This document shows, in pieces, positions 42,501-45,500 of a stretch of DNA of 64,000 nucleotides. Position 1 is the first letter of the stretch. Each line of letters opens with the position of its first letter. The stretch is taken from the NCBI GenBank assembly GCA_030141605.1, contig JAQGDQ010000478.1, positions 55,653 to 119,652 of the forward strand, given 5' to 3'. This DNA is from Tubiluchus corallicola. Its lineage: Eukaryota > Priapulida > Priapulimorpha > Priapulimorphida > Tubiluchidae. A program made the translations under genes and the position numbers. The notes under the pieces were generated by a model that was not told where the DNA came from, made no database searches, and was given only the letters and a program-made list of their open reading frames with translations.

Positions 42501-45500
42501 CTGCTTTTTTTAATATACGCTTGGCCTGGTGTGAAATCAATTGCACTACGCATTTTTTACAGTGGTTCGAACAGACAGCTTGAAGGGAAGGAGGGGACGG
42601 TTACCATCAAAACCAAAGAGTCCGCAGGAATCTCCACCATCTCCTCCAGTATCTCTCATCACGGCACTAGTCAGAGCTCATGTGGACACAACTCCAGATT
42701 TAGCTAATTTAGATTATTCCAAGGTAAGACTTAACAGAGCACATCAAGACTTTATGACACCTTACTTATGTCTCACCCATCTATATTGTGAATTTATGGT
42801 TTTTTATGTACAGAGCAGATTAACAATTATTTGTGGTGTATTAGAAACACTATTAACCTAGTTTCTACGTGGTCATTACGAATTACATGTATTTACATAG
42901 CAGTGGTCATTACTAATTACATGTATTTACATAGCAGTGGTCATTACTAATTACATGTATTTACATAGCATTTTATTTACTCAAGCAGGCTGTGCAACTG
43001 CTTGTTGTGTAATACCTTGTACTTGTTCATAATGTGGCACTTATATAAATAGGGAGCTCAGTAACTGCCTGTTGTGTGTTATAAAATGCGTCCTTTACAC
43101 GAATATCAGAGTATGCACATTTTCCAAGGAGAATAAGAATTTTTTCTAAAATGTGACGCGTTCATACTTTGGCACCCTAGGCTATAGCCTAGTTAGTCTA
43201 TTGGTTAATTCGCCCCTGGACTTTAATTAGTGTAACCTGAAATGACGTCATGCAGAAAAGAGGTGACATAATTTTGTGACTCTTATAGAGAAGCAACACT
43301 AAAGAAAATAAAGAAAAGCTTAGATTTAACATCAATTCAACAGCTATTACAAAAAAAGTTTTAGGTACAGATGTTTCTTGTTTGATGAAGCGTAAACATA
43401 GTAATTAGTAGCTACTCTATTATTATTTCAGGTTAATTAATAACTTTATACCTTATTTTGTTTGCAGTACAATGAACAGCCTTCTGCAGCGAGTCTAAAT
43501 ATGGCTGAAGACGTAAAGCAATTTTTCGACTTGCTCACCTCTTCCATAGATGTTATTCGAGTATGGGCAGATAAAATTCCGGGATTTTCAGAAATTTGTA
43601 AAGAGGACCAAGATCTGCTCTTTCAGTCGGCATGTCTAGAGTTGCTTGTACTAAGACTAGCTTATAGGTAAGCCATGATCCGCTTTCAGTAGATTAGCTT
43701 ATAGGTAAGCCATGATCCACAATCAGTAGATTAGCTTATAGGTAAGCCATGATCCGCAATCAGTAGATTAGCTTATAGGTAAGTCATGATCCGCAATCAG
43801 TAGATTAGCTTATAGGTAAGCCATGATCCGCAATCAGTAGATTAGCTTATAGGTAAGCCATGATCCGCAATCAGTAGATTAGCTTATAGGTAAGCCATGA
43901 TCCACAATCAGTAGATTAGCTTATAGGTAAGCCATGATCCGCAATCAGTAGATTAGCTTATAGGTAAGCCATGATCCACAATCAGTAGATTAGCTTATAG
44001 GTAAGTCATGATCTGCAATCAGTAGATTAGCTTATAGGTAAGCCATGATCAGTAGATTAGCTTATAGGTAAGCCATGATCCGCTTTCAGTAGATTAGCTT
44101 ATAGGTAAGCCATGATCCGCAATCAGTAGATTAGCTTATAGGTAAGCCATGATCCTCAATCAGTAGATTAGCTTATAGGTAAGCCATGATCCACAATCAG
44201 TAGATTAGCTTATAGGTAAGCCATGATCCTCAATCAGTAGATTAGCTTACAGGTAAGCCATGATCCACAATCAATAGATTAGCTTATAGGTAAGCCATGA
44301 TCCTCAATCAGTAGATTAGCTTACAGGTAAGCCATGATCCGCTTTCAGTAGATTAGCTTATATATAAGTCATGATCTTCAATCAGTAGATTAGCTTACAG
44401 GTAAGCCATGATCCGCTTTCAGTAGATTAGCTTATATATAAGTCATGATCAGCAATCAGTTACTAGTATTTGCACTTTTGTTGTTTGGTTCCTAAATGTG
44501 ACAGTAATTCTGCTATCTATTTCTAGTGCTTTGAGGAGTTTTTTCAAACTCATAAATAATGTACCAAAATTTCATCTAGAAGCCAATTTGCTAAAAAGAA
44601 AATGTGTAAAAATAATTGTGTTTGCAGCAGTAAATTGTTGCTCCATTCACGTATTCTAATGTTATCAACAGGGTCGCTGCATGATATCGTACGATACATG
44701 TTTAGTTAATAATTCCCTGTTTTCTGTTTTTATTTTAGAATTTATATATAAGTTTTAACCATAGATCTAAATGTTCAAAGAGAGAGACTTTAGACTCACA
44801 CAAATTGTTAAGCAACAATTGGTGCCAATGAGCAACATTGTTGCCTTAAGCATCATATACAAAGTATTTATTGATATTGTTGGCTAGGTAATCACTCTCT
44901 GTTCAGTGATGGCATGAAATCTAATAGTCTGGTTAAATAATCACCTGTCTGTGTTGTTCAGGATGAATGCAGGTGATGAAAAACTTATCTTCTGCAATGG
45001 TGTTGTGCTTAATCTCAACCAGTGTGAGCACACGTTCGGTGAATGGATGCAGGCAATTTCTGAGTTCTCACAATCCCTTCATCAAATGCCGTTAGATATT
45101 TCAGCGTTTGCATGCATGTGTGCATTAACCTTAATTACAGGTATGTCAGTGAAAAATTCGAAATGCGAAAACAGTTATTGTTATTGTTTCCTCTTAAGAG
45201 ACCAAAATTTTTTGCATAAAGAATGATCTCAGTTATTCACACACCTTGCTCAGCTGCCTACAGATTGGTATTTCGGTCAGAAGGAGTGTTCCGGCCAACT
45301 AGTGAGCATTTATTAGTATAGGGTTAACCTGTATCATCCGACTGGATCTGGGCGGGCAAAATTATAAACTCAAAATATTGTATATTTTAAATTTTTTACT
45401 TTGGAATTAAATTTCTCAACATAATTCATTCATTACCTTAACAAGTAATGTACTTCTTCTATAAGTTATAATGCTTATTATTCATTAATTTAACAAGTAA

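What the first reader, a model, noticed from the sequence alone, without database searches (positions are those of the whole stretch)
43655..44450. A minisatellite whose repeat unit is a working 5' splice site
The last exonic bases of NR4A exon 7 plus its donor (GCTTATAG|GTAAGCC) are the seed of a 37-bp array of about 22 units, about 20 of which retain a good GTAAG donor. The spliceosome therefore meets some 20 near-identical donors in a row. Only the first gives the full receptor; any later one adds an immediate TAA and would truncate the ligand-binding domain, giving a DBD-containing but LBD-less NR4A or an NMD target. Copy-number change could tune receptor isoforms. I recall intronic minisatellites spanning exon/intron borders being described in amphioxus genes, so the class may not be new, but this case in NR4A is striking.
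Basis: partly seen in the sequence, partly recalled or inferred. Interest (0 to 1): 0.85.

Follow-up and report, generated by a model that had tools for sequence, protein, structure and literature searches.

The report
Repeated splice-donor array in NR4A
In an animal gene for a nuclear receptor, the place where an exon ends has been copied 22 times in a row, so the splicing machinery meets 20 near-identical cutting signals; this is a known kind of repeat (a "mirage"), but this genome holds more of them, at other conserved genes, which makes it a natural test of how the right signal is chosen.

Summary
NR4A exon 7 ends at 43667; its last 13 bases plus the first 24 intron bases seed a 37-bp array of 22 units (43654-44460), 20 of which keep GTAAG. 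The exon-proximal donor is the authentic one by homology: the spliced protein aligns to NURR1 without a gap at that junction. All 19 later donors would give LAYR-stop. None of the 19 scores below the first and five score above it. The class is published: tandem copies of exon/intron borders in amphioxus are called "mirages" (PMC3087553, PMC3902484, passages). Added here is recurrence in one genome: of 20 further donor-word stretches read, 9 begin at the end of an exon-like open frame, 5 of them in recognised genes (PDCL3, Smoothened, Cut8-like, ANKRD13, NOMO). A duplicated acceptor lies in a METTL2-like gene of this window. Tuning of isoforms by copy number is unsupported: no RNA, no population data, no sign of selection on the decoys. 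The organism was not identified. Verdict: a real new member of a known kind.

The parts
43468..43667 (+). NR4A exon 7 (part of the ligand-binding domain, ends ...LVLRLAYR)
   Evidence: Pfam PF00104 6.4e-09; NURR1 alignment; boundary bases
43654..44460 (+). 37-bp minisatellite, 22 units, whose first unit is the exon 7/intron border
   Evidence: TRF, unit list
43668..43674 (+). authentic 5' splice site GTAAGCC (first of 20)
   Evidence: no gap at the junction in the NURR1 alignment; in-silico splicing
43705..44406 (+). 19 later donor copies, first at 43705 and last at 44401; units 4 and 10 GTAAGT, units 17, 19, 21 CAGGTAAGC
   Evidence: scores; all 19 give LAYR-stop
44025..44054 (+). 30-bp short unit (unit 11)
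44351..44387 (+). unit 20, donor lost (TATATATAAG); unit 22 (44425-44460) likewise
44076..44089 (+). acceptor-like TGATCCGCTTTCAG in unit 12, followed by a 15-nt in-frame segment and a donor; same acceptor type at the ends of units 1, 19 and 21
   Evidence: score 6.47, against 6.06, 6.27 and 8.01 for three NR4A acceptors; frame
44962..45140 (+). NR4A exon 8 ([13 protein letters not shown]...)
   Evidence: no Pfam match by itself
8383..8480 (+). second border duplication in the window: acceptor and start of a METTL2-like exon, two copies 50 bp apart (cuts after 8399 and 8449)
   Evidence: sequence, tblastn with a recalled human METTL2, boundary scan; the gene's first tested exon had no Pfam match

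Best explanation
It is a 'mirage': a minisatellite born by tandem duplication of an exon/intron border. A 37-bp stretch straddling the 3' end of NR4A exon 7 was duplicated into the intron and expanded by slippage or unequal exchange. The exon-proximal copy remains the real splice donor because it is the only one that keeps the reading frame; the other 19 are decoys that the spliceosome normally ignores, or whose products (R-stop, upstream of the exon 8/9 junction) are destroyed. Repeat homogenisation, not selection, keeps the decoys alike. Shown: seed, copy number, intact donors, frame consequences, and the same layout at other genes of this genome. Inferred: that the first donor is the one used in the cell, the expansion mechanism, and decay of mis-spliced products.
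For: Array starts at the exon end; no gap at the first donor in the NURR1 alignment; 19 of 19 later donors give a stop at once. The decoys are not purged: 19 of 21 intronic copies keep GTAAG, and none of these 19 scores weaker than the first, 14 equal and 5 stronger. Same design elsewhere in the assembly: 9 of 20 fetched donor-word stretches begin at the end of an exon-like open frame (judged by eye), 5 of these recognised: PDCL3 (5e-20 with the next exon joined, no gap at the first donor), Smoothened (1.6e-30), Cut8-like (6.1e-11, and 4.8e-15 on the next exon, profile positions 133 and then 132), ANKRD13_C (9.6e-11), NOMO (6.9e-14). Published mirages in amphioxus Adh3, globin, TnC and PGBD5 genes, with regular splicing said to be undisturbed (passages). 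Tandem arrays are abundant here: 18.1% of the window, by a list I compiled.
Against: No RNA evidence that the first donor is the one used. Within the window, borders are not enriched for local copies: 2 of 26 tested borders have one, against 361 of 2000 random positions (the 5' NR4A exons and the zinc-finger gene were not tested), so here nothing suggests a process aimed at borders. 11 of the 20 genome stretches show no exon at the first copy, and 4 of the 9 that do rest on open frame and acceptor alone. Competing-donor work says SRSF1 favours the intron-proximal donor, which would be wrong here, while hnRNP A1 favours the intron-distal one, which would be right (PMC5585400, passages).
Confidence: 0.82

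Rival explanations
1. Regulatory array: a fraction of transcripts uses later donors and makes an LBD-truncated receptor or an NMD target, and the fraction depends on copy number or cell state.
For: Later donors are equal or stronger; all 19 give the same truncated end, so any use has one outcome; human NR4A2 is reported to have splice isoforms of reduced activity and NMD transcripts (PMC12471074, passages).
Against: No RNA; the donor is not better kept than the rest of the unit (4 of its 9 positions vary against 6 of the other 28); analogous arrays lie in unrelated genes, which argues against an NR4A-specific device; amphioxus mirages said not to disturb splicing.
Confidence: 0.1
2. Nascent exon source: units carry both an acceptor-like CAG and a donor, so a 15-nt microexon (TAGATTAGCTTATAG) could be included in frame, adding SRLAY after LAY.
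For: 18 of 21 later units have CAG plus donor, and all 18 would be in frame and stop-free; one (unit 13) has a strong acceptor, a 422-nt upstream intron and a donor. The globin paper proposes new introns and exons from mirages.
Against: Most of these acceptors are weak; the best, CGCTTTCAG, leaves little room for a branch point and 15-nt exons are hard to recognise (both inference); no RNA.
Confidence: 0.03
3. The decoys are hidden by RNA structure formed between units.
For: The array RNA folds better than dinucleotide shuffles, z -7.5; GCUUA/UAAGC can pair around a donor (single-unit folds).
Against: When the unit is shuffled but the repetition kept, z is -0.73 for three units and -0.98 for one, so the first z reflects repetition. 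The first donor is the most accessible at one of three window sizes only.
Confidence: 0.02
4. Assembly artefact.
For: No reads were available.
Against: Units differ by point changes and one 7-bp deletion, as in real arrays; the same class recurs at other loci and in published genes, the globin ones with RT-PCR.
Confidence: 0.03

Closest known systems
Amphioxus "mirages" (Adh3; globins BflGb6 and BflGb9; TnC; PGBD5): PMC3087553 and PMC3902484, passages read; original Canestro et al. 2002 (PMC117041) not held, seen only as a reference
   Same: Tandem repeats straddling an exon/intron border, many copies keeping AG/GT signals, the genic copy still used; both 5' and 3' borders are affected, as in this window.
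   Different: BflGb6 has 3 or 6 units of 150-160 bp and BflGb9 one duplicate of 157 bp; Adh3 units are 10-72 bp (its copy number I did not see). Here 22 units of 37 bp with 20 intact donors. Organism here not identified.
Human IFI6 (6-16) minisatellite, Turri et al. 1995, title seen in reference lists only; link to gene 6-16 recalled
   Different: There, by the title, the array supplies several donors; here use is unknown and later donors would truncate the protein. Paper not held.
Dual-specific splice sites in tandem-repeat genes such as UBC, PMC10809524 (abstract and passages)
   Same: A tandem array in which units carry AG|GT.
   Different: UBC units are ubiquitin monomers and are spliced stochastically; here units are intronic and the AG of AG|GT scores well below real acceptors.

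Membership tests
Amphioxus-type mirage | Tandem repeat whose unit spans an exon/intron border | tested here: met
   Unit 1 holds 13 exon and 24 intron bases
Amphioxus-type mirage | Copies keep splice signals | tested here: met
   20 of 22 units keep GTAAG
Amphioxus-type mirage | Outer (exon-proximal) copy is the functional one; splicing undisturbed | tested here: inconclusive
   Homology fixes the junction needed for a full protein; no RNA
Amphioxus-type mirage | Length polymorphism, somatic instability | not testable with these tools
   One assembly, one matching place
Amphioxus-type mirage | Found in a cephalochordate genome | tested here: inconclusive
   Own assembly 343.5 Mb, window 36.6% G+C; no GFP-family match, but nothing rang in the controls either, so this shows nothing
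Dual-specific splice-site array | Each AG|GT also serves as an acceptor | tested here: not met
   TATAG|GTAAG acceptor scores 1.46-1.69 and CAG|GTAAG 3.84, against 6.06, 6.27 and 8.01 for three NR4A acceptors; sequence test only, with a recalled vertebrate table; the METTL2-like acceptor in use scores only 3.12, so the test is not strict; usage not tested
IFI6-type donor minisatellite | Several donors of the array used in mRNA | not testable with these tools
   No RNA data

The most novel reading that the evidence does not exclude
In this animal the expansion of exon ends into donor arrays is a pervasive process affecting many conserved genes, outside or beyond what is known in amphioxus, and its spliceosome follows a positional 'first donor wins' rule that overrides donor strength, with array length setting a low, heritable rate of truncated products such as an LBD-cut NR4A.
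Probability: 0.2. Interest if true: 0.8.

Novelty: new member of a known kind. Interest (0 to 1): 0.5.

Why it matters
Choice between competing 5' splice sites is usually studied with a few sites in constructs (general knowledge; PMC5585400 is one case with two). Here nature offers 20 near-identical donors in a row at NR4A, and other arrays at unrelated genes (48.5 repeat units at the PDCL3-like gene), each with one outer copy that must be used for a full protein. Counting junctions would show directly whether position, exon definition or strength decides, and how often errors occur. It would also test the published idea that mirages give rise to new exons and introns.

Tried and rejected
RNA hiding of decoys: z -7.5 against ordinary shuffles fell to -0.73 when the repetition was kept; rejected. 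First donor stronger than the rest: rejected for NR4A (14 equal, 5 stronger of 19). At the other five arrays scored, no later donor was stronger: equal in 38 of 47 (PDCL3), 2 of 2 (Smoothened), 45 of 47 (C110), but weaker in 15 of 16 at the Cut8-like gene and 12 of 12 at C53, so strength could help there. One search made the same comparison with a rounding fault and is replaced. Selective keeping of donors: in the 21 units of 36-37 bp, 10 of 37 positions vary, 4 of them among the 9 donor positions; no sign of it. Borders as repeat hotspots in this window: 2 of 26 against 361 of 2000 random positions, not supported. Genome-wide word counts: AGGTAAGY triples 1734 against 119 for the reversed word, single words 30296 against 17358; these are overlapping matches, swollen by a few long arrays and a dispersed 42-bp family, so I use them only as a hint. 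By place in contigs C1-C53: 14 donor-word clusters (list cut within C53) against 2 control clusters. With CAGG 502 against 35, with AAGG 156 against 38. The unrestricted AGGTAAG triple (6185 against 292) is inflated by GGTAA pentamers. Organism: GFP and mollusc haemocyanin families gave no match, but nothing rang in the controls, so no conclusion. Rfam at gathering thresholds: no match.

The splice-site scores use vertebrate base frequencies recalled from memory, so they are relative only. Exon at the first copy was judged by eye (acceptor upstream, open frame, unit resembling the exon end), without a fixed threshold; some rejected stretches also have open frames of 43-49 codons (C17, C38, C929). 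Database searches that found nothing: C5 exon alone, C53, C110 exon and next frame, C828, Cut8-like exon against PDB. Names from memory only: POU6F-like for C217, polycystin-like for C110. Clusters in the listings not fetched: C14 (copy of C2), C10, C18, C19, C370, C1259, C1580 (simple repeats), and the further sites on C17 and C38; places beyond the printed lists were not seen.

Full report
What is there. TRF finds one array at 43654-44460, period 37, 22.0 copies. Cut into units, 20 are 37 bp, one is 30 bp and the last is 36 bp; 20 of 22 carry GGTAAG. The first unit is the end of NR4A exon 7: exon 43468-43667, cut GCTTATAG|GTAAGCC. The gene is NR4A: zf-C4 3.9e-32 and ligand-binding-domain matches on two of its exons (exons 6 and 8 alone gave none), and the spliced exons 6-9 match NURR1 (6.4e-104), HR38 and NR4A1/3, with no gap at the exon 7/8 junction in the alignments shown. 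So the first donor is the one that makes the receptor.

What the later donors would do. In-silico splicing from all 20 donors gives two outcomes: the full frame for the first, and ...[12 protein letters not shown] for each of the other 19. The stop would lie well upstream of the exon 8/9 junction, which by the usual rule invites NMD (inference). The product would keep the DNA-binding domain and the first part of the LBD. The first donor is not the strongest: of 19 later donors, 14 score the same and 5 higher (relative scores, table recalled).

How the array varies. In the 21 units of 36-37 bp, ten positions vary: 4 of the 9 donor positions and 6 of the other 28. The exon copy alone has C at position 3; all others have T. 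The two donor losses are in units 20 and 22, which resemble each other and follow identical units 19 and 21, so they look like one event copied by a two-unit duplication (inference). Nothing shows selection to keep or to remove decoys.

Setting. The window holds a METTL2-like gene (by a recalled human sequence; no Pfam match), an alpha-tubulin, NR4A and a zinc-finger gene, and 18.1% of it is in tandem arrays by my list. Of 26 exon borders tested, two have a nearby copy: the NR4A exon 7 donor, and the acceptor of a METTL2-like exon, duplicated once 50 bp upstream. That is 2 of 26 against 361 of 2000 random positions. Given the repeat load, a border array needs no special explanation within this window; arrays at borders may survive because the exon-proximal copy stays intact (inference).

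The rest of the genome. The window lies in a 343.5-Mb assembly, where the stretch matched one place. Triples of AGGTAAGY at 10-40 bp spacing number 1734 against 119 for the reversed word, while the single word is 30296 against 17358; these counts overlap and are swollen by long arrays. I fetched and read 20 stretches chosen from the listings (11, 4, 5). In 9 of 20 the first copy is, by my reading, the end of an exon-like open frame: contigs C5, C32, C51, C53, C110, C217 (border overlap short there), C828, C1015, C1693. Five are recognised: PDCL3 (5e-20 once the next exon is joined, no gap at the junction though a 3-residue gap lies upstream; the exon alone finds nothing), Smoothened (next exon seen, with a below-cut-off family match), Cut8-like, ANKRD13 C-terminal domain, NOMO. 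The other four of the nine found no family. The remaining 11 of 20 (C2, C12, C17, C26, C30, C36, C38, C104, C236, C929, C1340) show no exon to my reading; C17, C26 and C38 carry one dispersed 42-bp family. In TRF runs on eight of the stretches the border arrays measure 48.5 copies of 33 bp (PDCL3), 4.9 of 42 (Smoothened), 24.2 of 34 (Cut8-like), 12.9 of 24 (C53), 47.6 of 32 (C110) and 24.1 of 37 (C217). Of the later donors at five of these arrays, 15 of 15 (Cut8-like), 12 of 12 (C53), 43 of 43 (PDCL3) and 46 of 46 (C110) extend into a stop, while at Smoothened one of two stays open.

What it is. This is the structure named "mirage" in amphioxus: minisatellite-like tandem copies of exon/intron borders in Adh3, globin, TnC and PGBD5 genes, said not to disturb regular splicing, unstable in length, and proposed as a source of new introns (PMC3087553, PMC3902484; passages read). 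A human minisatellite that provides multiple donors has been described for an interferon-induced transcript (title only). The closest tandem-repeat splicing system with data is UBC with dual-specific sites (PMC10809524, abstract and passages); the NR4A units fall short as acceptors by sequence. My paper searches listed no title or abstract opening that describes an NR4A case or a genome-wide count of such arrays; most lists were capped at 8 to 20 papers out of more, and the library holds open-licence papers only, so this is weak evidence of absence.

How it most likely works. Duplication and homogenisation make the array; exon definition from the upstream acceptor, or commitment to the first donor that emerges during transcription, lets the outer copy win; errors end in a stop. 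The choice step is inferred and not obvious: SRSF1 is reported to favour the intron-proximal donor, which would be wrong here, and hnRNP A1 the intron-distal one, which would be right (PMC5585400, passages). That is why the locus is a useful natural experiment rather than a solved case.

18 of 21 later units carry CAG before and a donor after a 15-nt segment that is in frame and stop-free (adds SRLAY). Four CAGs, at the ends of units 1, 12, 19 and 21, score like real acceptors, but only the one before unit 13 has both a workable upstream intron (422 nt) and a donor. I rate actual use as unlikely.

Limits. No RNA, no second individual, no named species. Splice scores are relative. The 20 stretches were picked from the places listed, not at random, so 9 of 20 is not an estimate for the genome.

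Noticed in passing
8383-8480: A METTL2-like exon has its acceptor and first about 32 bases duplicated 50 bp upstream; the upstream acceptor scores higher (7.79 against 3.12) but the downstream one leads into the whole exon.
   Followed up: partly
8729-10617 and 12830-13571: Large minisatellites (40-bp and 31-bp units) end about 25 bp before, or start about 37 bp after, METTL2-like splice sites without crossing them.
   Followed up: partly
L062 (C5), L064 (C32), L065 (C51), L081 (C1015), L083 (C1693): Donor arrays starting at exon ends of PDCL3, Smoothened, Cut8-like, ANKRD13 and NOMO genes of the same genome.
   Followed up: yes
L064 1599-1804: At Smoothened the unit is 42 bp, mostly exon sequence, a multiple of three; the first extra donor would add 14 codons without a stop.
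   Followed up: partly
L068, L069, L070 (C17, C26, C38): A dispersed 42-bp tandem family (AGGTAAGTCAAATGTAGACACAGG...) on several contigs, on both strands of C17 and of C38, not at exons; looks like a spread satellite.
   Followed up: no
14285-15052 and 39946-40203: The same repeat seems to occur twice in the window (similar translations such as SGPALSI.KLGNRLG and [14 protein letters not shown]), once with a long CT tract.
   Followed up: no
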